A stretch of 64,000 nt of DNA, taken from the NCBI RefSeq assembly GCF_003144315.1, contig NZ_MPDK01000002.1, positions 62,001-126,000 of the forward strand, read 5' to 3'. The stretch's first letter is position 1. Every line of letters starts with the position of its first letter. This document shows positions 35,345 through 48,303 of the stretch, piece after piece. Below the pieces are notes generated by a model. The model saw nothing but the letters and a program-made list of their open reading frames with translations. It was not told where the DNA came from and did no database searches. Origin of the DNA: Sulfoacidibacillus thermotolerans (GTDB lineage: Bacteria; Bacillota; Bacilli; Alicyclobacillales; SLC66). A program made the position numbers and the translations under genes.

Positions 35345-36058
35345 GTGAAAATTCAGATTCAGTTGTTTGCTTCCGTTGCAGAACATGCAGGCGTGTCAAA
35401 TGTTACTGTCGAGATCGCGAAAACTTCTGAGCAAATTACAATTGCAGATGTGAAAACGGCGTTACAAAACCAATTCCCACGACTTCATGAATTACTTGAT
35501 CGCTGCTGGTTTGCAATTGGCGATGATTACGCCCACCTCGACAAAAGCGTAAAATCGGGAGACGTCATCGCGGTCATTCCTCCAGTAAGCGGAGGACTCG
35601 CAAAACAGAGTACAGACTCAGCGGTACGCATTGTGCGTGAAACGCTCTCCCCAGCAGAAATGTATCAATATGTCGCCCGCAGTGCAGCGGGTGCTATCGT
35701 CGTATTTGCAGGAACCGTACGCGAATTTACAAAAGGGAGACAAACCAACTATCTCGAGTATGAAGCTTATGACCAAATGGCTCTACGACAAATGCAAAAG
35801 ATAGTCGATGACAGTGAAGCGCGTTATCAAGGGGCTAAAATGGCAATCTGGCATCGCGTAGGGACACTTCAATTAGAAGAGATTAGCGTTTTGATTGGCG
35901 TCTCGACTCCCCACCGCAAAGATGCTTTTCGTGCGGCAGAAGAAGCAATTACGATACTAAAAAGAACAGTGCCAATTTGGAAGAAAGAGTTCTACGCAGA
36001 TGGGGAAGTGGAATGGGTAGGACCTGAGGGGGTCTGGGATCCAACACAACAGTCGTAA
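35345..36058 (+). CDS. Fused molybdopterin synthase, MoaD-MoaE
   Basis: One 237-residue chain with MoaD (sulphur carrier, 1-84) joined to MoaE (large subunit, ~95-237). MoaD ends with the expected PPVSGG, but its Gly-Gly (about 83-84) is internal, followed by LAKQSTDSAVRIV of the linker. MoaE blocks GAIVVFAGTVREF, LEYEAYDQMA, HRVGTLQ and KKEFYADGEVEW are present, including the active-site lysines. Thiocarboxylation needs a free terminal Gly, so cleavage after GG is expected, as reported for mycobacterial MoaX. GTG 35345 preferred (GAGGCGG upstream). Read from a promoter with TATAAT at 35269. Confidence 0.92.
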   Translation: MKIQIQLFASVAEHAGVSNVTVEIAKTSEQITIADVKTALQNQFPRLHELLDRCWFAIGDDYAHLDKSVKSGDVIAVIPPVSGGLAKQSTDSAVRIVRETLSPAEMYQYVARSAAGAIVVFAGTVREFTKGRQTNYLEYEAYDQMALRQMQKIVDDSEARYQGAKMAIWHRVGTLQLEEISVLIGVSTPHRKDAFRAAEEAITILKRTVPIWKKEFYADGEVEWVGPEGVWDPTQQS

Positions 36059-36072
36059 GCGATTTCATAGAG

Positions 36073-36102
36073 GGCGCAGGCAAAAACTTGCCTGCCCTTT
36101 TT
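36073..36102 (+). terminator. Rho-independent terminator after moaD-moaE
   Basis: Arms GCAGGCAA (36076-36083) and TTGCCTGC (36088-36095), loop AAAC, followed by CCTTTTT. Confidence 0.9.
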
Positions 36103-36289
36103 ACTGCTCGTCATCATCTTCAAGCAGTCGAGGAGAAAGTTTATGCGTCCCGCCTTTCTGGCGGATCGAATGGGAGATGGCGAGGAACGGATCTTCGTTC
36201 GAATGTGCTGTTTTTCGCAACAATTCTTCCGCATCTCTCGCACTAGAGGGCTGCGATAAAGGCTTATGCCCCTCGGCCACAGAGTACAC
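36101..36289 (-). CDS. Small hydrophilic protein, unknown
   Basis: About 62 residues, charged and without hydrophobic segments, ending LSPRLLEDDDEQ. GTG 36289 has a weak AGGGG upstream; another GTG three codons in is possible. Family not recognised. Kept because it fills an otherwise empty 230-base gap between a terminator and the next gene and has even codon use; it may be spurious. Confidence 0.4.
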   Translation of the reverse strand: MYSVAEGHKPLSQPSSARDAEELLRKTAHSNEDPFLAISHSIRQKGGTHKLSPRLLEDDDEQ

Positions 36290-36344
36290 CCCTTATAAGT
36301 CGAATCAGGACGATGAACTTCTTATGAATATATGTACGATTTTA

Positions 36345-37682
36345 CTACGTTGATAAGCCAAGTTCTAGTCCTTCAGATGAATTTTCTTCACAACTCTCAT
36401 TCTCCTCTTGGTGCTCCGCTTTTTCGTGCACGCGCATTGATGTGCGCAAAGACCAATCAACAATGTGCCACATGCGCTCTGAATAAGCCGCAAGCAAACG
36501 ATCCAACTCGTCGCTTGGCAAAACAAGGATATTAAACTGGTCCGCACACTGTAAAAATTGTGCATCAACACGTCCAAGGGCGAGCACGATGGCGCGATCG
36601 GCCTGCTCAAGTGCCATGTGCGCATAAACGTGATCTACTACCCCTTCCTCTACTCGCCCACTATCACTCACAAAACCGACTTGAAAAAGAATTCGTTGAT
36701 CTCCCGAAGAAGCTACAAAATACCCATCTTTTTCCGCTTGTGCACGATAAGCTAATGAATTTTTTGCGCTTAGGAAAATCTCTTGTAGCCATCGCACACA
36801 AGCTGACACATCATTTTTTGCCAAATGCTGCAAGGTTTCGACCGTAACAACCGATGAAGTAACTGTCCACGCCTCAGATGCAAACTCAGTTTGTGACTGC
36901 ATCGGTTGTACGAGATGAGACTCAAGTAAGATCGCTCGTCGGTTGCTTAAAACGGCTTCATGCGCCTCCTGGACTGCTTGATTGACAACCGCATGCATGG
37001 ATAGAAAGCGTCCTGCTTTGACAAAGCGCCTCATTTCCTGAACACTCCATGCCTTCGCGAGTAGTTCTGCAAATAATTCACGATAGAAGAGAGTGGGGCC
37101 ACCGTCTTGTTTTTCACATTCACGCTCCCAGATCGAAAAGCGCAAACACACAGCAGAGAAATCTTCGGCAGTTTGCAATCTTTTGCCTTGAATCACCTCT
37201 TTTTCGATGCGATTCTGATAATATCGGTGTACTTCGCGATTAGCGAGCAAAACAAGAACAAAAATATCGATGGTCTTTCCAAGATGACGCTTCGCTACGA
37301 TCGCAAGATCTTGCCACGGCGCCGGAATTTCTTCCCTTTTTAATGACAGTGTGCTGCTGCGCAAAAGCCGTGTAAGATTCACTTCGTCAAATTCTCCAAG
37401 TTGAAATGGAATGTATAAATAACGTGGATATTTCCGTGCAAAACGCTGACAAAGTAAAAGAATCTCCTCGTTTTCAACGAGTAATCGGTGAATTCTCCAC
37501 TGAATTGGCCACTTTTTTATATATAAAGTCAACCATGTAATAAATGGTGAACCTTGTACTTCATCCATCAGGGCAAACCAACTAATCGTAAATAATCCAA
37601 ATCCGACCGTTACGACTGCAGATTCCTTAAACCACAGCCCACCAACGCACAACATCAGGCTAAACAACCACAGTTGCATCAT
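36345..37682 (-). CDS. Membrane-anchored protein with restriction-nuclease-like C-terminal domain, unknown
   Basis: About 445 residues. Two N-terminal helices (QLWLFSLMLCVGGLW and AVVTVGFGLFTISWFAL) are followed by a long helical cytosolic region. From about residue 310 the pattern AEKDGYFVASSGDQRILFQVGF, then ADRAIVLALGRVDAQFLQCADQFNILVLPSDEL, resembles the core of Mrr/REase-type domains (GYxV, D-x-VQ-K, then a strand with vi.lgr and a final 'i.L.d.eL'), but the catalytic lysine is replaced by Gly/Phe, so nuclease activity is unlikely. ATG 37682 has AAAGGGGA upstream. Divergent from the GH18-like gene. Confidence 0.6.
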   Translation of the reverse strand: MMQLWLFSLMLCVGGLWFKESAVVTVGFGLFTISWFALMDEVQGSPFITWLTLYIKKWPIQWRIHRLLVENEEILLLCQRFARKYPRYLYIPFQLGEFDEVNLTRLLRSSTLSLKREEIPAPWQDLAIVAKRHLGKTIDIFVLVLLANREVHRYYQNRIEKEVIQGKRLQTAEDFSAVCLRFSIWERECEKQDGGPTLFYRELFAELLAKAWSVQEMRRFVKAGRFLSMHAVVNQAVQEAHEAVLSNRRAILLESHLVQPMQSQTEFASEAWTVTSSVVTVETLQHLAKNDVSACVRWLQEIFLSAKNSLAYRAQAEKDGYFVASSGDQRILFQVGFVSDSGRVEEGVVDHVYAHMALEQADRAIVLALGRVDAQFLQCADQFNILVLPSDELDRLLAAYSERMWHIVDWSLRTSMRVHEKAEHQEENESCEENSSEGLELGLST

Positions 37683-37783
37683 ATTGACAACGTCCCCTTT
37701 CTCCATTCGCACAGTTCTTACAACCCTCATAGATTCATAGAATGAGAAGAAAGCACGGATTTTGCAAAGTGAGGGTTAGAAAC

Positions 37784-39109
37784 ATGCAGAAATTACATGT
37801 GGGACAGAGCACCTCCAAACTTGTAGCACGAGTGATTTTTATCGGAACATTCCTGTTTGGATTGATGATCGCAATTGCGATATATGGTAGTTCGCAATTT
37901 GTAAAACTCACCGTTTCGAGTGAATATGCGCTTTCTACATGGTTGACATCTTCTGCAATCGAACAAATTGCTCCTACGCCACTTCCTTCACCTGTCGATC
38001 TGACGTACGCATTTACGTGGCTGTCATTGGAAGGCGTACCTTTACACTTTCCTCTTCCTACACAGAACACCAAATCCCTCTTTACTAAAGCTTTGCCCAC
38101 GATCTCGTGGAATAATCTCGTCGCTCATGTGACAAAAAATATCTCTGTCTCTTCGCGCCTAACGGTGGGCTGGACACTTGACAGCAGCAATCAAACGGTA
38201 GAACAAGCACTCACAGCAAGCCCTGGATTAAGCGTCATCGCCCCCAAATGCCTTCACGTCGATGGAATAAATGGTGCAATTGCCGGATCTATTCCAAAAG
38301 CCGCCGTTACACTAGCGCATAAAAAAGGGGTACAATTTTGGGCTGTTGTAGATAACGGATTTAATGGACCACTTAGCCATAAGATTTTAGCCTACAACGA
38401 TCAACAAAACATGCTCATTGCTCATCTCGTTGAACTTGCACAACAGTCACAAATTAATGGAATCAACCTCGATTTTGAAGGATTATTACCTGAAGATCGA
38501 TGGAACTTTACCGATTTTGTAGACAAGTTAGCTGCAGCTCTTCATGCTAAACACATGCTGCTCTCTGTCGACTTACCGCCTGATATTCTCCCAGGCGATA
38601 ATACAGGTGCATATAACCACCGAGAACTTGCAAAATCCGTCAACTACATCGTTTTAATGGGATATGACGAATATTGGGGAGGAGATCAAGTTGCGGGTCC
38701 GACCGCTTCTTTGCCGTGGGTCAAGCAGTCGGTACAAGATATGCTGGAAACAGGAGTACCAAGAGCGAAACTCATTTTAGGTGTTCCTTTTTATACACAA
38801 GATTGGACACTAAATAAAAATGACTCTGTTCTCTCCAGTGTCGCGCTCTCCCTCTGGCAAACGCGCTCAATCCTTGCAACGACACATGCCAAACAACAAT
38901 GGAACGCAAAGCTTGGACTGCACGTCGCCTCTTTTACTGAGAATGGGATCAAACATGAAATATGGGTGGAAGACAAGCGTTCCTTGCTGCTCTTTGCCGA
39001 TCTCGTCAGTGAACAGCATCTAGCGGGTGCTGCTGCATGGTACTTAGGATTAGAAACGGAGAGCACGTGGAGAGCACTCGTAGACACTGTACATTCAAAC
39101 ATCGCATGA
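37784..39109 (+). CDS. Membrane-anchored glycoside hydrolase family 18-like protein
   Basis: 441 residues. One N-terminal transmembrane anchor (LVARVIFIGTFLFGLMIAIAIYG), then an extracytoplasmic TIM-barrel of GH18/spore peptidoglycan hydrolase type: NGINLDFEGL supplies the general acid Glu232 and Asp230, while the first Asp of DGxxxDxE is Asn. Later NYIVLMGYDEYW, LILGVPFY and GAAAWYLGLET are typical of the YaaH/YdhD-like branch. ATG 37784 with GAGGG upstream is preferred. LysM domains common in this branch are missing. Likely acts on cortex or cell-wall glycan. Confidence 0.8.
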   Translation: MQKLHVGQSTSKLVARVIFIGTFLFGLMIAIAIYGSSQFVKLTVSSEYALSTWLTSSAIEQIAPTPLPSPVDLTYAFTWLSLEGVPLHFPLPTQNTKSLFTKALPTISWNNLVAHVTKNISVSSRLTVGWTLDSSNQTVEQALTASPGLSVIAPKCLHVDGINGAIAGSIPKAAVTLAHKKGVQFWAVVDNGFNGPLSHKILAYNDQQNMLIAHLVELAQQSQINGINLDFEGLLPEDRWNFTDFVDKLAAALHAKHMLLSVDLPPDILPGDNTGAYNHRELAKSVNYIVLMGYDEYWGGDQVAGPTASLPWVKQSVQDMLETGVPRAKLILGVPFYTQDWTLNKNDSVLSSVALSLWQTRSILATTHAKQQWNAKLGLHVASFTENGIKHEIWVEDKRSLLLFADLVSEQHLAGAAAWYLGLETESTWRALVDTVHSNIA

Positions 39110-39170
39110 CGGTCGCTCAAAGAAACGTGAACTTGTTTGATTCGAGCAAGAAAGGATCGGCCTGCTCTTG

Positions 39171-40505
39171 CTATGTAGCCTCATAAACGCGTGATGAGAT
39201 ATGCTGTGTCAACCATTCAAAAATCTTTGTGCGATCCCAGTGATTTGCCCCCATTCCTGCTAGAAAAGCAATACCAAGCGACCCTGTATCTTCACTGCGC
39301 ACATACAAAGGAACGTTTGCCACGGTTGTTTGTAAAGTATAAATCCACTCATTACCAAATCCGGTGTGATCGGTGTATAACCGATAAATCGTTTTCCCAG
39401 TAAGGCGATTCATTTCCTGAACAGCATCAGATACGGCAGTCACAATCGCTCTGAGTGCAGCAACATAGATTTCCTCAAGCGTTGTTGTCGGACCTATCCC
39501 CGCAATGACTGCACGATGTGACGACTGAGAAGCGAGTGTAAGGGTTACTTGCTCATCATGCAATAACAGATCCGCTCTACGCTTTAGTGTCTCCTCATTC
39601 GGGAAGGAGAAAGGGATGTTTTGCAACCACTGCAAAATAGTATTTTGAGACTCAAACTTTGCAAGAAGTAGCGCATGGAGTGTCGTTACATTCGGAGCAT
39701 CGACTTTAAGCGGTAAAAATGTCGTCGCAGATTTGTTCACTGCTTGTACATCCTGTGCGGAACAAAGAGTGATAAATCCTCCATCAAAATCATAGCTCAC
39801 AAAAGCCTCGTGCTCATCAGCAAGTCCTGCGCCAAACAGTGTGCTCACAGAAGTGGTTGCCACGGCAGTAATCGGTACCGGAATTCCACCAAGAAACGGA
39901 GCTGCGACTTGACCCACTCGAGAGGCACAGGTTACAGATTTTGCAAGTCGAATCGAAGTATCTAACGGTAAGAACCCTGCGCCTGCATCTTTAGGTGAAG
40001 TGGCATCGCCCAGTAGACGATGACTAGAAGCAATGACATGGTGGGCGCCGTGCGACAAATTCCATATCAACCAGCTTTCAATGCCGCCAAGTAACACGGT
40101 GGATCCTTCGCGGATTTTTGCCTCACCTGTTTTTGCCTCAAGAATCCATGTTCGTACCAAGGGTTCTATGTCTTTTGTAAAATCTTTTGCATGAAAAGGT
40201 AAAAAGCGAACGGGGCCCAGCGGGCTTCCCGAGTTTTCATCCCACAACACAACTGCGTCTTCTGGTGCCGCAATACCGACTCCGATCAGTTCGTGTGGCA
40301 AAATGCACGCTTTGCGTAAAGCGGAATCAAGCAACAAAATCAAACTACTAAGTAGATCATCTGGATGAAGAACAGCTAAATCATCTCTCCCACCAGCAAA
40401 TTCCCGGCGCGCAACGCCGATTGTTCTTCCGTGCTCGTCATAAACAAGAGCAGATAACACGGAGCCCTTATAGACGATCGATAAAACATATGCGGTTGAG
40501 TTCAA
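39171..40505 (-). CDS. FGGY-family kinase-like protein, degenerate
   Basis: 444 residues with the two-domain layout of FGGY carbohydrate kinases. Recognisable parts are VLWDENSGSPLGPVRFLPF (the WD..TG.P region of glycerol kinase), GGIESWLIWNLSHG, SHRLLGDAT, and GSLGIAFLAGMGANHW near the end. The usual N-terminal phosphate loop DxGTT is replaced by VYKGSVLSALVYDEHG, and the adenosine GGG motif is not clear, so kinase activity is doubtful. TTG 40505 has GAAGGGAG ten bases upstream. Follows the DtxR-type repressor gene by 35 bases. Confidence 0.7.
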   Translation of the reverse strand: MNSTAYVLSIVYKGSVLSALVYDEHGRTIGVARREFAGGRDDLAVLHPDDLLSSLILLLDSALRKACILPHELIGVGIAAPEDAVVLWDENSGSPLGPVRFLPFHAKDFTKDIEPLVRTWILEAKTGEAKIREGSTVLLGGIESWLIWNLSHGAHHVIASSHRLLGDATSPKDAGAGFLPLDTSIRLAKSVTCASRVGQVAAPFLGGIPVPITAVATTSVSTLFGAGLADEHEAFVSYDFDGGFITLCSAQDVQAVNKSATTFLPLKVDAPNVTTLHALLLAKFESQNTILQWLQNIPFSFPNEETLKRRADLLLHDEQVTLTLASQSSHRAVIAGIGPTTTLEEIYVAALRAIVTAVSDAVQEMNRLTGKTIYRLYTDHTGFGNEWIYTLQTTVANVPLYVRSEDTGSLGIAFLAGMGANHWDRTKIFEWLTQHISSRVYEAT

Positions 40506-40540
40506 CCGTTTCGACTCCCTTCACCCGTAACTCCAAAATG

Positions 40541-41209
40541 TTACTCATTAGCAACGACACTAACCATAATTCGCTCTGCTACATCTCGTGTCAATTCTAC
40601 GGTTTTCCCCTGCAAACTGACAGCAAGTTTCGCCTCTTTGGGATTGTTGGTTATAATCGATACCTTCTGACCAGGCAAAAAACCATGACTCTGCAACTCG
40701 CGCAAAAGTTCAACATTCTCTTCCGCCTGTTCAAATATCCGAACGATTTCTAGCGTATTCGAAGGAGACCATGTCGAGAGTGGAAATGCTTGTAATACAT
40801 TGCTGTTTGATCCTGGAATAGCATTTCCATGTGGACATGTCGTTGGAAAATGTAGCATTTCGTCCAATTTCTCTTCCACAATAGGCGATAGACAATGACC
40901 TAAGCGACTAGCTTCAAGGTGAGCTGTACCCCAATCTAACTGTAAAACATCACACAAAAAACGTTCTAAGAGACGATGACGTCGCAAGGATGCGTTGGCT
41001 TGTTGTTGACCGCGAGCAGATAAAAAAATCTCTTTCCCCTCATGAATTTCAACAAGGCCTGCTGCTACAAGACGCTTCATCATCTGAGTCACTGTGGGAC
41101 GAGAGACTTTTAGATATTCAGCCAGACGCGCTGCAATGACAACAACCCCTTCAGCACTCAAAATCGCAATCGCTTCAAGATATGTGTCTACCGCATAGTT
41201 CCTTTTCAC
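40541..41209 (-). CDS. DtxR/MntR-family metal-dependent repressor
   Basis: 222 residues: winged helix (VVVIAARLAEYLKVSRPTVTQMMKRLVAAGLVEI), helical metal-binding/dimerisation domain (RRHRLLERFLCDVLQLDW, EASRLGHCLSPIVEEKLDEML, FPTTCPHGNAIPG), and a C-terminal SH3/FeoA-like domain. It therefore follows the longer DtxR/IdeR/TroR plan rather than the 142-residue MntR. GTG 41209 has GGAGGT five to six bases before. Fe or Mn cannot be separated by eye. Sits next to a diiron-type protein and a kinase-like gene. Confidence 0.9.
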   Translation of the reverse strand: MKRNYAVDTYLEAIAILSAEGVVVIAARLAEYLKVSRPTVTQMMKRLVAAGLVEIHEGKEIFLSARGQQQANASLRRHRLLERFLCDVLQLDWGTAHLEASRLGHCLSPIVEEKLDEMLHFPTTCPHGNAIPGSNSNVLQAFPLSTWSPSNTLEIVRIFEQAEENVELLRELQSHGFLPGQKVSIITNNPKEAKLAVSLQGKTVELTRDVAERIMVSVVANE

Positions 41210-41268
41210 AGATACCTCCACTTTACTTTTGTGATTGACCTCTCAAACTCCTCTCTATCTTATCGAAA

Positions 41269-41296
41269 ATCCGCGCCTATCGCGATAGGCGCGGAT
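41269..41296 (-). terminator. Terminator formed by a perfect 28-bp palindrome
   Basis: Arms ATCCGCGCCTAT and ATAGGCGCGGAT around CGCG. On the minus strand it is followed by TTTTCG and lies 27 bases after the stop of the haem-oxygenase-like gene. Confidence 0.8.
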
Positions 41297-41322
41297 CATA
41301 GAATCGTGAGATTCCAATTCTT

Positions 41323-42411
41323 CTATACGTTTGACTGTAAAAAGCGATGGAGTTGTGCATCACAATAGTCTGCCGACGTTTGTAGCCGCAACAGAAATCC
41401 CTGTGCAATTTCTACGGGGGCTCTTCGATCATAAAGAGCAAGCGGCTTTATAATTCGATCAAATAGGCCCTCTGCATGCCCTACATCCGCGTCGATGTGT
41501 TCTGTCAAATAACCAAGTTGATCGCGCTTCATTCCATGTCGTGTGCAAGCAGACACAAGTTGTTCACAGCGTTTGGGAGCATTCAATTCAAATGCAGCTA
41601 AATATCCCGCTAGACGCCAGGTGTGACGGCGATCATACGCCATACCCAGTTGAATATTACTACACGCGAGTGCTTCTGTTGTCGGTTGTGTCATGACTTT
41701 TTCGTTTTTTCCACAAAAACCCAATACATAGTCGCTCGTTTGTTCAAATAAAGTCGTATGCACGCGATCAGGATCTCCGTGCCCCATTTCATCCGCAAAA
41801 TTTTCAGCATACTCATCTTTTGCCGGACCATCAAGCCCAATTTGCGCTAGAGCGATCAGATCATCAAAACGCGCATCGACACTCCCCTCTTGGTAAAAAA
41901 AAGATTTGACATCCACGAGAGGAGCCTCATCGCATAAATATGAAAAAACGGGATGATTGGAAGCAATATGATATTCATTTACTTCTTTCAAATATTGTAC
42001 AAGTGCATCTGGATTTTCCGGAACGGGGTCTACATCTAATTCGCGCAGACGGGTCAACTCATGACCAAAATAGCGTTCCCACAAAATTTTGCGCAGTTCA
42101 AAAGCAACACGCGACAATTGGTTGCGCGCAAGCCAAGTGTGCGGTTTCGCACTATGCATGGCAAACAGTTCAGACAACGCTAGGTGAAATTCGGCGCGCA
42201 ACGCTTCATTGTGTGGGAAAAAAGCGAGATCACAAAGCGTATGCGCCCGTGCAAATAAATTCCACGTTGTCGTGGCATCGGCACTATCTAATTCAGAGAT
42301 CGCATGCAGTTTGGCGTAGAGTGATGAATCCTCCTCCTGATGTACATATGAATACTCCAAACGCAGCCCTCGCTTCCGTGTGATTTCTATCAGCACATCA
42401 TACGCAGGCAA
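41323..42411 (-). CDS. Haem-oxygenase-like iron-containing redox protein
   Basis: 362 residues. The C-terminal two thirds match the haem-oxygenase-like diiron oxidase group: NFADEMGHGDPDRVHTTLFE, AFE in the next helix, and TEHIDADVGHAEG. Probable metal ligands are E175, H218, E275, H305, D309 and H312. The ~130-residue N-terminal helical region is extra. Members of this group do oxidative C-C, C-N and decarboxylation chemistry in small-molecule pathways, but the substrate here is unknown. TTG start 42411 with a modest AGGGG upstream. Thirty bases downstream of the HAD gene in the his cluster. Confidence 0.75.
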   Translation of the reverse strand: MPAYDVLIEITRKRGLRLEYSYVHQEEDSSLYAKLHAISELDSADATTTWNLFARAHTLCDLAFFPHNEALRAEFHLALSELFAMHSAKPHTWLARNQLSRVAFELRKILWERYFGHELTRLRELDVDPVPENPDALVQYLKEVNEYHIASNHPVFSYLCDEAPLVDVKSFFYQEGSVDARFDDLIALAQIGLDGPAKDEYAENFADEMGHGDPDRVHTTLFEQTSDYVLGFCGKNEKVMTQPTTEALACSNIQLGMAYDRRHTWRLAGYLAAFELNAPKRCEQLVSACTRHGMKRDQLGYLTEHIDADVGHAEGLFDRIIKPLALYDRRAPVEIAQGFLLRLQTSADYCDAQLHRFLQSNV

Positions 42412-42441
42412 ACGTAAAGTTAGACCCCTATTCTGTCGAAT

Positions 42442-43389
42442 TTACACGAACAGACTTGTAATCTCCGCAACCGACTGCACGACCTTTACGTCCTCTAATG
42501 GAGCCACAGCGTGAAATGACGCTTTAGAACCAATACCAATAAAATGAAATCCAGCAGCATGCGCAGCCAACCAATCTGCTGGCGAGTCACCTATAACGTA
42601 AACTTGTTCTATAGGAAAATCGAATGCAATACTTGCATACGTGTATGGATGCGGCTTGGCTCGCGAATATGGCGCAACGCCTAACGCTTTTTCATAAGCA
42701 AATACTTCATCAGAAGTACAGATGCGCAAAGGATCAAAAAAAGTAAGCAACTCGTGCTGAGCTAATGGAGAAAGCGCTTCATGGCGCGGACGTCCAGTGC
42801 CAATTCCAAATGTAAAAAACTTACTATGAAGGGATTGAAAGAGTTGATAGAGCGTGCTGCGATCGCACAACAAGCGCTCTTGGGCAACCATACCCATTTG
42901 CAAGGAAGGCTCTTTTGCAGTCGCATCCCCCAAATAAAACCGTTGAAAACGCATCTTCACTTCCTCAAAAAGTGGATGTGCATATCGTTGCAGAGGTAAC
43001 ACGTTTTCCATTTGCTGAATGTGGTATAGGAATTCTTGCCCTGATCCAGGGATGGATTCAAAAAGCGCCAACAAATCATTTGCTAAGTTTACCGTATTCT
43101 GGCGATTAACTGCTAACGTTCCGAGCAACACGGTCCCTACATATGCTTTATCCCAATTGCTATTTAAAGCTCGCCTACGCATCGCTTGAATAAGGGCATG
43201 CGAAAATACTAGTGAACGCAATGTCTGTGCCTGACTTAAGAGTGTGCCACTCTGTTGCATACGATCGGACCATTGCGGGAAAAACAGAGGTAAAAATGAA
43301 CCAATCGTCAGCGCAGCTGTATCGAGATACCCCTCTTCAGACAACAAAACTCCATCAAGATCGAAAAGCAAAAGGCGTTTTTTACTCAT
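42442..43389 (-). CDS. HAD-superfamily hydrolase
   Basis: 315 residues, larger than usual. Motif I is LLFDLDGVLL, motif III region AKPHPYTYASIAF, motif IV GDSPADWLAA, so phosphatase chemistry is likely. The cap region (40-200) is long, helical and unfamiliar. ATG 43389 overlaps the hisB stop by eight bases, so it is translated from the his transcript. It could supply the histidinol-phosphatase step or a repair function; sequence alone does not tell. Confidence 0.8.
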   Translation of the reverse strand: MSKKRLLLFDLDGVLLSEEGYLDTAALTIGSFLPLFFPQWSDRMQQSGTLLSQAQTLRSLVFSHALIQAMRRRALNSNWDKAYVGTVLLGTLAVNRQNTVNLANDLLALFESIPGSGQEFLYHIQQMENVLPLQRYAHPLFEEVKMRFQRFYLGDATAKEPSLQMGMVAQERLLCDRSTLYQLFQSLHSKFFTFGIGTGRPRHEALSPLAQHELLTFFDPLRICTSDEVFAYEKALGVAPYSRAKPHPYTYASIAFDFPIEQVYVIGDSPADWLAAHAAGFHFIGIGSKASFHAVAPLEDVKVVQSVAEITSLFV

Positions 43390-44029
43390 ATCGCTCTTCA
43401 ATTTCAAACCGAATGTCGCCTGCCACTCCCGCCGTCATCTGCGCTCGCCATTCGCGTTCCATAAGTGCCTCATACAAAGCCATTCCAAAAGCACGAAAAA
43501 TCGCTTCCCAAATATGATGGCCATGTCCTTGACGACCTTTTAATACATCAACATGCAACGTACACTGCGCACCTTGCACAAAGCCTTCAAAAAATGCGAC
43601 TAAATCTTCACTGCACATTCCTTCCATTTGTTCGGGAAGTTCCACATTTTCGCGCGTAAAATCGAAATATGCGCGGTTCTCAAAGGAGATGACAGCGCGC
43701 GCGAGGGATTCATCAATGACTCCATACGCAGATCCATAACCTACAATGCCATTTGCAGCATTACGTTCGACGTATTCTTTGACTGCTCGACCTAATGTGA
43801 TCCCAACATCTTCTGTAATGACGTGAACTAAATCGAAATGATCGAGTTGTACAGTAAGAGTAATATTCATTTGACCACGCCAAGCAACATGTTCCAACAT
43901 ATGATTAAAAAATGGAAGTGGAGAAGCAAGTTTTTGTTTCGCATCTGGATCACGTGGCCCGCGATCTAAAGTGATCTCCATGCTGGATTCCCGTGTACTT
44001 CTTACTACGCGGATCTGTTTGTGTTTCAA
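43382..44029 (-). CDS. hisB: Imidazoleglycerol-phosphate dehydratase, divergent
   Basis: 215 residues. Opening VVRSTRESSMEITLD, the Mn-binding FFNHMLEHVAWRG (usually FLDHML..la.H), HVITEDVGITLGRAV (usually H-x-EDv), and HGHHIWEAIFRAFGMAL with HHxxE are present. Several normally fixed residues differ: TTG/IPFLDHM is replaced by ASPLPFFNHM, so it is a divergent IGPD. TTG 44029 gives the family N-terminus but has no clear ribosome binding site; the gene sits 170 bases after hisD behind a hairpin. Confidence 0.85.
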   Translation of the reverse strand: MKHKQIRVVRSTRESSMEITLDRGPRDPDAKQKLASPLPFFNHMLEHVAWRGQMNITLTVQLDHFDLVHVITEDVGITLGRAVKEYVERNAANGIVGYGSAYGVIDESLARAVISFENRAYFDFTRENVELPEQMEGMCSEDLVAFFEGFVQGAQCTLHVDVLKGRQGHGHHIWEAIFRAFGMALYEALMEREWRAQMTAGVAGDIRFEIEERYE

Positions 44030-44047
44030 AATCAGTAAACCCGGTTC

Positions 44048-44080
44048 AAAAAACCCACCCTACTGACGGTTAGGTTTTTT
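44048..44080 (-). terminator. Possible attenuating terminator between hisD and hisB
   Basis: AAAAAACC (44048-44055) pairs with GGTTTTTT (44073-44080) around an imperfect inner stem CCTA/TAGG; on either strand it ends in six T. It stands between two genes that should be co-transcribed, so it may attenuate hisB or end hisD transcripts. Confidence 0.5.
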
Positions 44081-44200
44081 AGCTCTTGCAAGCCCGCAGT
44101 CTAAAAAAAACAGTGTTTAAAAAGTATTTGACCGCGAAACCAGGCTCCCCTCCTTTCCCTAGTAAGGTTTTTTCGGTTACACTCTTGTGCTCTACTCACT

Positions 44201-45508
44201 TTACTTCAAACGTTTGCGAAGAGCCTGTCCATGTGTTTCAAATCCTTCCACATCAGCCATTGCAATGGCGTGTGGCGCAATACGCTGCAATGCAGTTTCA
44301 CTCACATACCCGATCGAAGATCGCTTCATAAAATCGTGCAACGAGACTGAGGAAATCGTTCGCGCACTACGCCCTGTTGGCAAGATGGCATTAGGTCCTA
44401 ATAAAAAGTTGCACAGGGTAATTGGCGTATGCTCACCTAGTAAGATCTCCCCAGCATGGACAATGCGAGGAAGAACAGAAAAAGGATCTTTGACCATAAC
44501 TTCTAAATGTTCAGGTGCATATGCATTCACAAAATCAACCGACTGTGCAAAGTCATTGGTAATGACAATTCCTCCATAACGTCGCAAAACTTCTAACACA
44601 AACGCACGTCTTGTCGGACTTTCAATGGCCTCTACCAATTCTTGAACGTAAGATGCTACAGCATCCGCCAGTTGCTCACTCTCGGTGACAAGCAAAGCAG
44701 CGCTATCTGGACCATGTTCAGCCTCTATGAGTAAATCTAAGGCGGCCTTATACGGATCTGCCGATTCATCAGCTAAAATGATGGATTCACTCGGACCAGC
44801 CGGAATCCCTGGATCAATCACTCCCATCAGCAAACGCTTTGCCGCGGTAACATATGGATTGCCCGGCCCAATAATCTTTGCACATTTTGGAATTGTCTCT
44901 GTGCCGTAAGCTGCTGCTGCAACTGCCTGTGCTCCCCCAACTTTATAAACTTCCTGAATGCCAAGCAGGTGTGCAACAAATAAGATCGCGGGGTCTACTT
45001 TTCCTTGCGGATTCGGTGGAGTTAAAACGACGATCCTTGGCACACCCACAACGACAGCCGGAGTGCCAAGCATGAGCAAAACAGATGGAAAGCTACCCTT
45101 GCCGCGCGGAACATAAAGAGCGACATCACTAATGGGTGTCACTTTTTCTCCTGCTAAGATTCCTTCATCAACTTCCATCATCCACATAGGTTCAGGCTTT
45201 TGTGCCTCGTGAAAATTCCGTATATTTTTAGCTGCATAGCGAAGCGCCTCTGCAACATTTGGAGCTACTTGTGTAATGCCAAAAGCAAACTCTTGCTCAC
45301 TCACACGCATGTCCGAAGCCGCAAGACGTACTCCATCAAATTGCTCTGTATATTTTAGAACGGCTGCGTCCTTCTGTGCTTTGACATCTGCACAAATTTC
45401 AGCGACGATTGGCATTTGCTCTGAAACATCCGTGCTAGCGCGCAACAAAATGCGCGCCTTCATCTCATCATCTGCTGTTTGCCAATAAATTCGGTTGATT
45501 TCGATCAC
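44201..45508 (-). CDS. hisD: Histidinol dehydrogenase
   Basis: Last two oxidations of histidine synthesis. NAD-binding YVPRGKGSFPSVLLM, KVGGAQAVAAAAYGTETIP, GPGNPYVTAAKRLL, PAGPSES and the zinc/catalytic region with NAYAPEHLEV and a final GFETHGQ are intact. The Q-x-x-H of the zinc site appears as EAEHGPDS. 435 residues. GTG start with GAGGTG upstream. First gene of hisD-hisB-HAD, preceded by a perfect palindrome. Confidence 0.92.
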   Translation of the reverse strand: MIEINRIYWQTADDEMKARILLRASTDVSEQMPIVAEICADVKAQKDAAVLKYTEQFDGVRLAASDMRVSEQEFAFGITQVAPNVAEALRYAAKNIRNFHEAQKPEPMWMMEVDEGILAGEKVTPISDVALYVPRGKGSFPSVLLMLGTPAVVVGVPRIVVLTPPNPQGKVDPAILFVAHLLGIQEVYKVGGAQAVAAAAYGTETIPKCAKIIGPGNPYVTAAKRLLMGVIDPGIPAGPSESIILADESADPYKAALDLLIEAEHGPDSAALLVTESEQLADAVASYVQELVEAIESPTRRAFVLEVLRRYGGIVITNDFAQSVDFVNAYAPEHLEVMVKDPFSVLPRIVHAGEILLGEHTPITLCNFLLGPNAILPTGRSARTISSVSLHDFMKRSSIGYVSETALQRIAPHAIAMADVEGFETHGQALRKRLK

Positions 45509-45526
45509 AATCGCACCTCAGTCTTG

Positions 45527-45550
45527 CTTTAGTATATTAGTATACTAAAG
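45527..45550. promoter_or_regulatory. Palindromic operator-like site upstream of hisD
   Basis: Perfect inverted repeat with ten-base arms CTTTAGTATA (45527-45536) and TATACTAAAG (45541-45550) around TTAG, 19 bases before the hisD start. AT-rich and without T-run, so an operator rather than a terminator is likely. Binding protein unknown; TrpR-like HisR/YerC repressors are known to control his genes in Bacillota. Confidence 0.65.
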
Positions 45551-45593
45551 GATTTGCCTCACTTTGTCTAGTTGTAAATGGAGAGTCTGTCTC

Positions 45594-45995
45594 CTATCGT
45601 TGCTTTGGCACAATTGCCACTGTACACCGTGAGACGCACACAAGACGCTCTTGCTCATCGCGAATCCGAATATCCCACACATGCGTCGTTCGCCCTCTAT
45701 GCAAAGGTGTTGCAGTTGCTACGACATATCCTTCATGCACCGAACGGATATGATTCGCATTGATTTCAAGCCCAACAGCAACTTGTGTCGCTTGATCGAT
45801 TTGATACCATGAACCCACACTCGCGACAGTTTCTGCAAGTGCCACAGATGCCCCTCCGTGCAACATTCCCGCTGGTTGATGTGTGCGATGATCAACAGGC
45901 ATACGAGCGATCACAAGTTCTGGTTCAAGCGTCAAGAGCTCGATGCCAAGCCACTCAATCATCGTATTTTCAGTCATGCGTTTTTTTTCAGTCAT
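45594..45995 (-). CDS. Hotdog-fold thioesterase (PaaI/YdiI type)
   Basis: 133-residue acyl-CoA thioesterase. The hallmark GMLHGGASVALAETVAS with the catalytic Glu and HGG is present, followed by VGLEINANHIR and the C-terminal strand CVSRCTVAIV. ATG 45995, with AGGTGAAC upstream, sits at the 3' end of the LysR gene (its stop at 45998 is two bases upstream), so both are on one transcript. Confidence 0.92.
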   Translation of the reverse strand: MTEKKRMTENTMIEWLGIELLTLEPELVIARMPVDHRTHQPAGMLHGGASVALAETVASVGSWYQIDQATQVAVGLEINANHIRSVHEGYVVATATPLHRGRTTHVWDIRIRDEQERLVCVSRCTVAIVPKQR

Positions 45996-45997
45996 GT

Positions 45998-46879
45998 TCA
46001 CCTATTCCTTTCCTCTTGAAAAATTGTAATCATTGACTGCCAAAAAGCATCAATCAGTAAATCTGTACGACGAGCTTTGGGCACAACAAGATAAAATGTA
46101 CGTTGAATCGGCAAAGCGAATATCTTTTTAATCTTTGCCCGCTCCACGGCAAGTGAGGAGACAAACGCATATCCTAGCCCCCCCTCAACCATTGCAAGTT
46201 GTGTGGTCGTATCTTCAACGTGCGCAATGTAGCGCAATTCTCTTGCCTGGATGCCATAGTGCTCAAGAATAGCTGTTTCCACAGCGCGCTTTGTTCCTGA
46301 AGTCGATGTCCGACCGATTAGAGGAATGCGCAATAAATCTTGTGGTCCAAGCATTTCATTGGCACTAGGGGGGCCAATTAAAAAAATTTCATCTTGATAA
46401 ATCGGCTCACTCCTCCAGTCTGCACCTTCTGGAACCATCCCAACAAATGCGAGATCGATGCTACCCTGACTGAGCGCTGCCATAATATCTGCAGAAGATT
46501 GCACGCGAATCGAAAGATCGACATGAGGGTATTGCTCTCGAAATGACAACAATCCTCTCGGAAGCAAATGCGCACCAGGAATTGTACTCGCGCCAATGTG
46601 CAACAATCCTGTAATCTCTGCATCAAAACTAGAACAAGCGTGCACAAGCTCCTCCCATTGCGAAAGCAAGTGCTTGCCCACTTGATAGGCAAGTACTCCT
46701 GCTTCAGTCAATTTTACGCTCGATTGCTCACGATACAAAAGCGTAACACCTAATTCTTGTTCTAGTGTCTTAATTTGTTTACTCACAGCCGGTTGTGTCA
46801 ACCCAAGCTTGATCGCAGCTTCAGAAAAACTGCTCCGATCCGCAACCTCAATTAATGCGAGAAAGCGTTTTAAATTCAT
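45998..46879 (-). CDS. LysR-family transcriptional regulator
   Basis: 293 residues: HTH in the first 60 (SSFSEAAIKLGLTQPAVSKQIKTLEQELG) and a periplasmic-binding-like effector domain (GLLHIGASTIPGAHLLPRGL, DLAFVGMVPEG, VEGGLGYAFVSSLAVERAKI). CysL/YwfK-like in look. AGGAG before ATG. Divergent from the SDR gene and upstream of a thioesterase; either could be its target. Confidence 0.93.
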   Translation of the reverse strand: MNLKRFLALIEVADRSSFSEAAIKLGLTQPAVSKQIKTLEQELGVTLLYREQSSVKLTEAGVLAYQVGKHLLSQWEELVHACSSFDAEITGLLHIGASTIPGAHLLPRGLLSFREQYPHVDLSIRVQSSADIMAALSQGSIDLAFVGMVPEGADWRSEPIYQDEIFLIGPPSANEMLGPQDLLRIPLIGRTSTSGTKRAVETAILEHYGIQARELRYIAHVEDTTTQLAMVEGGLGYAFVSSLAVERAKIKKIFALPIQRTFYLVVPKARRTDLLIDAFWQSMITIFQEERNR

Positions 46880-47031
46880 TATAATATCTCCTCACAGTAA
46901 TCGCGCATCCAGAACTCGTTACACTTATGATATCATGAAATATAGACTTGTCATCGCTTGCCTGCTTGCGTATGAAGAGTTCGTTTCTACTCTCATAGAT
47001 TTGATCTCGAGATAAGAAAAGGGTGAAAAAA

Positions 47032-47796
47032 ATGAAGAAAGTGGCCATGATCACTGGCGCAAGCGGTGGAATTGGAAAAGCTACCGCATTGCAACTGGCT
47101 GACGCAGGTTTCGATCTGGCGCTAGGCGCTCGGAATCTAGAAAAATTAGCTGAAGTTGCAAAAATTGCTCGCGACAAGGGAGCGGATGTCTATATGAACG
47201 CATTAGACGTACGCAACTTGGAGAGTGCAACACAATTTGTCGACGAGGCAAAAGAGCATTTTGGCCACATTGACATCCTGGTAAATAATGCAGGATTAGC
47301 CCTTGGAACAACCAAAATCGCTGAACAAACCGATGAGACCGAGTGGCAAACTATGATTGACACAAACGTCATGGGACTTTTGCGAATGACGCGTTTGGTC
47401 GTACCTCTGATGATAGAAAATGGCTATGGTCATGTGGTAAATCTCGGTTCTACAGCTGGACATGATGCGTATGCAGGAGGATCTGTTTACTGTGCAACAA
47501 AATTTGGTGAGCGCGCAATCTCTACCGCTTTACGCCATGAATTGCTCGGTTACCCTATTCGCGTCACCTCAGTAGATCCTGGAATGGTGGAAACTGACTT
47601 TAGTGTAGTTCGATATCAGGGAGATAAACAAAAAGCAGAGCAAGTATATGAGGGGATGATTCCGCTTACTGCAGAAGATATTGCCGATATCATTGTCTTT
47701 GCCGTCACGCGTAAACCGCACGTCGATCTCGACACAATCATCGTACGACCAACTGATCAGGCGGGCAATGGACTCGTACACCGACGTCAAAAGTGA
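47032..47796 (+). CDS. Short-chain dehydrogenase/reductase (YdfG-like)
   Basis: 254-residue NADP-dependent SDR. Cofactor motif TGASGGIGKA, NNAG, catalytic Ser in NLGSTAGHDAYAGGSVYCATK with YxxxK, and the C-terminal DTIIVRPTDQ seen in serine/3-hydroxy acid dehydrogenases. ATG 47032 with AAGGGTG six bases upstream; a GTG three codons earlier is less good. Divergent from the LysR regulator. Confidence 0.92.
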   Translation: MKKVAMITGASGGIGKATALQLADAGFDLALGARNLEKLAEVAKIARDKGADVYMNALDVRNLESATQFVDEAKEHFGHIDILVNNAGLALGTTKIAEQTDETEWQTMIDTNVMGLLRMTRLVVPLMIENGYGHVVNLGSTAGHDAYAGGSVYCATKFGERAISTALRHELLGYPIRVTSVDPGMVETDFSVVRYQGDKQKAEQVYEGMIPLTAEDIADIIVFAVTRKPHVDLDTIIVRPTDQAGNGLVHRRQK

Positions 47797-47824
47797 AAAA
47801 GAAAAGCTAAGCAGTTCTTTGGTC

Positions 47825-47855
47825 GCGCGCATGGGATACTATGCGCGCCATTTTA
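47825..47855 (+). terminator. Rho-independent terminator after the SDR gene
   Basis: Arms GCGCGCAT (47825-47832) and ATGCGCGC (47841-47848), loop GGGATACT, followed by CATTTTA. Confidence 0.7.
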
Positions 47856-47943
47856 CCGACATGAAATACAAACCCAAGAGGAGCGCATCCCCCGCTTTAA
47901 TCTCGGATTCAAGAAAATGGTTCTCATCCTCGAGAAACCCCAG

Positions 47944-48303
47944 TTACATTCGAGTGCAAGAGTGAATGTTTTGTGCATTCTCTGCCACAATTTGTTTTGC
48001 TAAAGCGATCATCTGCCGCACACGCTCATCAGTAATGCGATAAACAACAAATTTACCCTGTTGTGTGGAGCTTACATACCCACACCATTTTAAACAGGCG
48101 AGTTGATTAGAAATTTGACTTTGTGACACTCCTAAGCGCTCCACCAATTGACTAACATTCATATCTGCAGTAAGCAGTGCCTCGACGATGCGCAGACGAG
48201 TCGCGTTGGCCAATCCCTGAAAGAATTTCGCATAGATTTCCGCTGAGGGAGACGAGGTTTCAGCCGTATTTACTCCATCGATCGAGAAAAATAATTCATC
48301 CAT
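47944..48303 (-). CDS. ArsR-family metal sensor, CmtR-like
   Basis: 119-residue winged-helix repressor. Helix LGVSQSQISNQLACLKWCGYV carries C70 and C74 inside the recognition helix, and C116 lies in the C-terminal HSCTRM. This C-x3-C in the recognition helix plus one distal cysteine is the Cd/Pb-binding layout of mycobacterial CmtR, different from ArsR/SmtB sites. ATG 48303 with AGGAGCC upstream. No metal exporter is adjacent, so its target is not obvious. Confidence 0.88.
   Translation of the reverse strand: MDELFFSIDGVNTAETSSPSAEIYAKFFQGLANATRLRIVEALLTADMNVSQLVERLGVSQSQISNQLACLKWCGYVSSTQQGKFVVYRITDERVRQMIALAKQIVAENAQNIHSCTRM

What the first reader, a model, noticed from the sequence alone, without database searches (positions are those of the whole stretch)
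41323..42411. Haem-oxygenase-like diiron protein next to a DtxR repressor
Complete probable ligand set for a diiron site plus an unfamiliar 130-residue N-terminal region. Such proteins act in unusual oxidations; the neighbouring metal-dependent repressor and kinase-like protein suggest a small metal-regulated unit with unknown substrate.
Basis: partly seen in the sequence, partly recalled or inferred. Interest (0 to 1): 0.55.

Follow-up and report, generated by a model that had tools for sequence, protein, structure and literature searches.

The report
HrmI-like diiron oxygenase in a histidine operon
The gene encodes a probable iron enzyme of a known oxygen-using family, closest to one that adds oxygen to the side-chain nitrogen of lysine, and it sits behind histidine-synthesis genes rather than in the metal-regulated unit first proposed; what it acts on is not known.

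Summary
The minus-strand gene is a haem-oxygenase-like diiron protein (Pfam PF14518, 3e-30) with all six metal ligands. Two corrections: the start is better placed at TTG 42360 (345 aa), and the N-terminal region is not unfamiliar. It aligns end to end with HrmI, the lysine N6-oxygenase of hormaomycin biosynthesis (5e-33; predicted model Z 38.5, rmsd 2.3 over 320 residues).

The "DtxR + kinase" unit is not supported. A strong hairpin follows the stop codon in 7 of 7 orthologous loci. DtxR is the next gene in 3 of 7, and also occurs at this place without the oxygenase. The kinase-like neighbour looks degenerate. The constant partners lie upstream: hisD-hisB in 6 of 6 informative loci.

The seven proteins form their own branch (100/100). 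All have Ala where 17 of 17 other HrmI-type sequences compared have Trp. The seven host genomes gave no match for NRPS condensation domains or IucA/IucC synthetases, which argues against those outlets.

Best reading: an orphan HrmI-type amine N-oxygenase expressed with histidine genes, substrate unknown. It is a new member of a known kind, in an unusual setting.

The parts
41323..42360 (-). HDO protein, HrmI-type, 345 aa, TTG start; ligands E191, H201, E258, H288, D292, H295
41268..41297 (-). 13-bp hairpin followed by UUUUC just after the HDO stop: probable terminator; a hairpin lies at this place in 7 of 7 orthologous loci, with a clear T run in 4 of them
   Evidence: (z -4.58)
42442..43407 (-). 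HAD-superfamily hydrolase between hisB and the HDO gene; in 6 of 7 HDO loci, also present in 6 of 6 informative loci without the HDO
43382..44029 (-). hisB, imidazoleglycerol-phosphate dehydratase (named by recall, not by a family scan; orthologues kept at the locus)
44201..45508 (-). hisD, histidinol dehydrogenase, the only match found in the genome
40541..41221 (-). DtxR/MntR-type metal-dependent repressor; not a constant partner
39171..40505 (-). FGGY (glycerol-kinase-like) protein, apparently degenerate; not a constant partner

Best explanation
The protein is a haem-oxygenase-like diiron oxygenase of the HrmI branch. Shown here: predicted fold, ligand set, branch, strong conservation and gene order. 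Inferred: it binds two Fe(II), reacts with O2 to give a peroxo-diiron species and puts oxygen on the amine nitrogen of a small amino-acid-like substrate, as HrmI does on lysine N6. It is probably transcribed at the end of a hisB-HAD-HDO unit (perhaps with hisD) that stops at a hairpin before DtxR. The product is probably used as a small molecule in its own right, because no NRPS condensation domain or IucA/IucC synthetase was found in the seven host genomes. Whether the substrate is lysine, a histidine-pathway amine or something else is open.
For: PF14518 3e-30. HrmI is the top solved relative by sequence (5e-33; profile 8.1e-41), by Foldseek (TM 0.82) and by VIA-align 2 (Z 38.5, rmsd 2.3, 320 aligned; the next non-HrmI structure has Z 26.7). 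All six ligands are kept in the 7 orthologues. R244 is kept in 24 of 24 HrmI-type sequences and is a possible substrate anchor. The HDO is about as conserved between congeners (78 and 75%) as HisD (83, 78) and HisB (79, 81), and more than HAD (52, 47) and FGGY (47, 44); purifying selection is inferred, no dN/dS was computed. HisD-HisB lies upstream in 6 of 6 informative loci. A hairpin follows the stop in 7 of 7. HrmI oxidises the lysine side-chain amine to nitro through N6-hydroxylysine (PMC13108848, passages read). No PF00668 (0 of 7) and no PF04183 (0 of 7) match in the host genomes.
Against: Identity to HrmI is only 28% over 309 aligned positions, and the window proteins lie outside the supported HrmI clade. 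HDOs with similar ligand sets do very different chemistry; HrmI and BesC act on near-identical substrates differently (PMC13108848). The clade has Ala at the otherwise constant Trp189 position and Leu for the His at 285 of the HrmI group, so substrate or reaction may differ. The lysine-pocket residues of HrmI could not be compared. None of the eight window proteins scanned by Pfam is a 2OG dioxygenase, dapF or exporter, unlike the neighbours of Streptomyces and Agrobacterium relatives. For operon structure: a terminator-like site lies between hisD and hisB, the scan found 11 terminator-like sites against 6.7 expected by chance, and it found no promoter-like site ahead of DtxR.
Confidence: 0.45

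Rival explanations
1. A diiron HDO that does other chemistry (desaturation, C-C cleavage or rearrangement) on an amino acid or a histidine-pathway intermediate.
For: The ligand set is shared by HDOs of several of these activities (PMC13108848, passages). The clade-specific Ala189 and Leu285 suggest a changed site. It lies behind hisD-hisB.
Against: The nearest structure by a wide margin is an N-oxygenase (Z 38.5; BesC 21.4, UndA 19.7). HAD and hisD-hisB persist in 6 of 6 informative loci that lack the HDO.
Confidence: 0.25
2. A stress protector that acts by iron binding, scavenging or making a protectant, as proposed for the HDO-domain protein DtpC of Acinetobacter baumannii.
For: DtpC shows that an HDO-domain protein can protect cells and that three tested ligand positions are needed (PMC13232832, passages read). 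The window gene has no evident pathway companions and is not found in 11 of 18 family genomes, 5 of which are at least 90% complete with at most 5% contamination.
Against: No sequence link to DtpC was tested. DtpC's own mechanism is unknown.
Confidence: 0.15
3. One reading: DtxR-controlled iron-responsive HDO plus kinase.
For: The three genes lie in a row on one strand in the window and in G001. No promoter-like site was found in the gap before DtxR.
Against: DtxR is adjacent in 3 of 7 HDO loci and present without HDO in G005. A hairpin lies between HDO and DtxR. The kinase-like protein looks inactive.
Confidence: 0.07

Closest known systems
HrmI, L-lysine N6-oxygenase of hormaomycin biosynthesis (PDB 9n1a, 9n1e, 9n1x, 9nh9)
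   Same: Whole-chain fold including the N-terminal region, six ligands, E158, D166, D167 and R244
   Different: 28% identity; Ala instead of Trp at 189, Leu instead of His at 285; set behind histidine genes, and no NRPS condensation domain found in the host genomes
SznF and RohS, HDO N-oxygenases (substrate classes, guanidine and 2-aminoimidazole, partly recalled)
   Same: HDO core and ligand spacing; sequence match 7e-5 to SznF; Z 25.2 and 24.9
   Different: SznF adds a cupin domain and a seventh carboxylate ligand (PMC13108848, passages); identity 16-18%
FlcD, methine-excising HDO of fluopsin C biosynthesis
   Same: Similar length and fold, Z 25.8 over 304 residues
   Different: 14% identity; different reaction (PMC11363339, listing only)

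Membership tests
Haem-oxygenase-like diiron oxidases/oxygenases (HDO) | Haem-oxygenase-like helical bundle | tested here: met
   AlphaFold2 model pLDDT 87.3; HDOs lead the solved matches; PF14518
Haem-oxygenase-like diiron oxidases/oxygenases (HDO) | Three His and three carboxylate ligands on core helices | tested here: met
   E191, H201, E258, H288, D292, H295, invariant in 7 orthologues and collinear with HrmI and SznF; by sequence only, geometry not measured
Haem-oxygenase-like diiron oxidases/oxygenases (HDO) | Bound dinuclear metal that activates O2 | not testable with these tools
   needs purified protein
HrmI/BelK lysine N6-oxygenases | Inside the supported clade that holds HrmI | tested here: not met
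   HrmI groups with Agrobacterium vitis and two Streptomyces proteins (98/100); the window proteins form a separate clade (100/100); how the two clades relate is unresolved, and BelK was not included (25 rows, one a very distant paralogue)
HrmI/BelK lysine N6-oxygenases | Lysine-binding residues of the HrmI pocket | not tested
   residue list and coordinates not available; R244 is conserved but its role is unknown
HrmI/BelK lysine N6-oxygenases | Genes for using nitro-lysine nearby (2OG dioxygenase) and an NRPS | tested here: not met
   none among the eight window proteins scanned; PF00668 in 0 of 7 host genomes; 2OG dioxygenases elsewhere in the genomes not searched, unmatched frames of the other six loci not annotated

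The most novel reading that the evidence does not exclude
A branch of HrmI-type oxygenases has moved out of natural-product clusters into the histidine operon of a family of Bacillota and oxidises a histidine-pathway amine (for example histidinol or histidine), or lysine, to a small N-hydroxy or nitro metabolite used directly in primary metabolism or signalling. The Trp-to-Ala change would be the mark of the new substrate.
Probability: 0.15. Interest if true: 0.65.

Novelty: new member of a known kind. Interest (0 to 1): 0.38.

Why it matters
About a dozen HDOs have validated functions (PMC13108848, passages), mostly in small-molecule biosynthesis, out of at least 19,778 candidate sequences (PMC13185094, passages). 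A conserved HDO in the single hisD locus of genomes in which no NRPS condensation domain was found is a clean case for finding an HDO with a role outside such pathways, and the constant Trp-to-Ala difference gives a ready mutational test.

Tried and rejected
DtxR-HDO-kinase unit: rejected on synteny, the hairpin and apparent kinase degeneracy; against this rejection, no promoter-like site was found ahead of DtxR. A second, specialised hisD copy that would make the block a natural-product cluster: rejected, since hisD has one match in the genome and hisA/hisF-type genes lie on another contig. HAD as the only histidinol phosphatase: not supported, since a HisJ-type match over cut-off exists elsewhere. 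A siderophore outlet through IucA/IucC and a peptide outlet through NRPS: matches in 0 of 7 genomes each; other routes are not excluded. RNA families in 36000-48000: none up to E 1. Close relatives outside the family: the one genome-contig scan gave 5 loci, 4 from contigs whose lengths match genomes already seen and one partial cyanobacterial hit. The profile A2 found 8 of 398 sampled class genomes, 3 of them outside the family (G023, G174, G361); the wider profile A3 found 1 of 398 sampled phylum genomes, the own one. Plasmids: 45 of 72,556 records matched, all under 60% identity; I fetched 13. History of the gene: the HisD tree needs 3 changes of HDO presence (6 rows with, 6 without, one not counted), but its well-supported branches force only 1, bootstrap trees need 2-3, and 79 of 500 shuffles do as well. 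Ancestral presence with losses is my inference from the shared insertion place, not a test result. Literature: the searches listed no paper that I recognised, from titles and abstracts, as describing an HDO in a histidine operon; open-licence full text only, and long lists were cut. The Annual Review, the hormaomycin/belactosin paper and the RohS paper are not held; no HrmI structure paper appeared in the searches.

Full report
What is there. The minus-strand frame 41323-42411 encodes a PF14518 protein (3e-30). NCBIfam gives only a sub-threshold match to the BesC model (0.089). The start is best placed at TTG 42360, 345 aa: the frame begins at the aligned position in G002, which has an in-frame stop just ahead, and in G008, G014 and G016, two codons earlier in G001 and further up in G013.

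Metal site. By alignment with HrmI and SznF the ligands are E191, H201, E258, H288, D292 and H295. They are invariant in the eight sequences of A1. In 24 HrmI-type sequences the only change is Glu at 292 in the Leptolyngbya protein. The residue numbers of the SznF ligands are recalled; the 3H/3C pattern and the equivalence across HDOs were read as passages in PMC13108848, PMC13185094 and PMC13232832.

Fold. A first model from seven sequences had pLDDT 71.6. A second from ten had 87.3 and pTM 0.88. After them come 3bjd at 26.7, FlcD at 25.8, SznF at 25.2 and RohS at 24.9. The HrmI alignments start at model residue 6 to 11, so the N-terminal region is shared with HrmI.

Branch. In a tree of 25 proteins (24 HrmI-type and one distant paralogue with a very long branch) the seven window-type proteins are one group (100/100). 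HrmI groups with the Agrobacterium vitis and two Streptomyces proteins (98/100). 7 of 22 inner branches are open and the deeper order is unresolved. At position 189, two residues before ligand E191, 7 of 7 window-type proteins have Ala; 17 of 17 other HrmI-type sequences and the paralogue have Trp. At 285 they have Leu where the HrmI group has His. Whether these residues line the pocket was not tested.

Neighbourhood. Of 18 genomes of the family (G000-G017), 7 carry the gene. Upstream are hisD-hisB in 6 of 6 loci where the contig reaches that far; the seventh, G014, starts in the HAD gene. HAD lies between hisB and HDO in 6 of 7 (not G013). DtxR follows in 3 of 7 (window, G001, G013). The FGGY-like gene follows, after DtxR where present, in 6 of 7 by BLAST; G013 has a very divergent frame there without a Pfam match. 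Of the 11 genomes without the HDO, 9 matched HisB, one of them at a contig edge. I fetched 7 of these loci and 6 were informative. All 6 keep hisD-hisB-HAD and none has the HDO there. G005 keeps DtxR and FGGY, G004 and G009 keep FGGY, and G003, G011 and G017 have neither at that place. So the upstream block is constant, and HDO, DtxR and FGGY come and go separately.

Transcription. A hairpin lies within about 70 bases of the HDO stop in 7 of 7 loci; a clear T run follows it in window, G001, G002 and G013, and is poor in G008, G014 and G016. In the window it is a 13-bp stem followed by UUUUC (z -4.58). It ties for the lowest energy among the ends of 53 open frames of at least 150 aa in the window, with three frames (the tied one included) within 0.1 kcal/mol and a fourth at 0.5. 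The HDO therefore most likely ends its transcript. The consensus scan is weak: 11 terminator-like sites against 6.7 expected, 6 promoter-like sites against 10.5 expected, none of the latter ahead of DtxR. HAD overlaps hisB, and the HDO starts 81 bases after HAD. A 171-base gap between hisD and hisB in the window contains a terminator-like site, so joint transcription with hisB is likely and with hisD only possible.

Conservation. Identities to G002 and G001 are HDO 78 and 75, HisD 83 and 78, HisB 79 and 81, HAD 52 and 47, FGGY 47 and 44%. The HDO is held about as tightly as the biosynthetic enzymes. In 9 of 9 aligned FGGY-like rows I see no match to the recalled GDQ motif of glycerol kinase.

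Function. HrmI turns the lysine side-chain amine into a nitro group (PMC13108848). Relatives on Streptomyces and Agrobacterium plasmids sit beside a 2OG dioxygenase and dapF. Two Bacillota relatives sit beside an aminotransferase (Pfam) and an exporter-like protein (named by eye). None of the eight window proteins scanned is of these kinds. The seven genomes gave no NRPS condensation domain (0 of 7) and no IucA/IucC synthetase (0 of 7). I therefore favour a stand-alone amine N-oxygenase whose product is used as a small molecule (0.45). Other HDO chemistry is the main rival (0.25). The histidine genes point weakly to a histidine-pathway amine; because HAD and hisD-hisB persist without the HDO, this is a lead only.

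Verdict. The diiron reading is confirmed by sequence and predicted fold, the metal-regulated unit is not supported, and the nearest characterised enzyme is HrmI. It is a new, uncharacterised member of a known superfamily in an uncommon setting.

Noticed in passing
L015:6154-13947 (G023): HrmI-type HDO in a compact cluster with a 2-hydroxyacid dehydrogenase, a radical-SAM protein, an alanine-racemase-like enzyme and a class I/II aminotransferase (Pfam), plus a MetK-like and an EamA-like protein named by eye: looks like an amino-acid antimetabolite cluster.
   Followed up: partly
L035:7052-10232 (G361): HrmI-type HDO (31% to window, 35% to HrmI) followed by an aminotransferase and an EamA-like exporter named by eye.
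   Followed up: partly
L039 and L040: Conjugative plasmids of Klebsiella variicola and Salmonella enterica carry an HrmI-type HDO near a LysE-type and next to a DMT-type transporter.
   Followed up: no
window 44030-44200: The hisD-hisB gap is 171 bases, with a terminator-like site, against 19 bases in G002.
   Followed up: partly
window 39171-40505: FGGY kinase-like protein that seems to have lost catalytic residues and evolves fast, yet keeps its place in many relatives.
   Followed up: partly
L020:8004-8747 and L021:8058-8852: Two more PF14518 proteins in the same genome (contigs C24 and C44); the second is mainly DUF3050.
   Followed up: no
window 36345-37730: 461-aa protein with a weak, below cut-off match to the Mrr restriction endonuclease domain (0.0033).
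   Followed up: no
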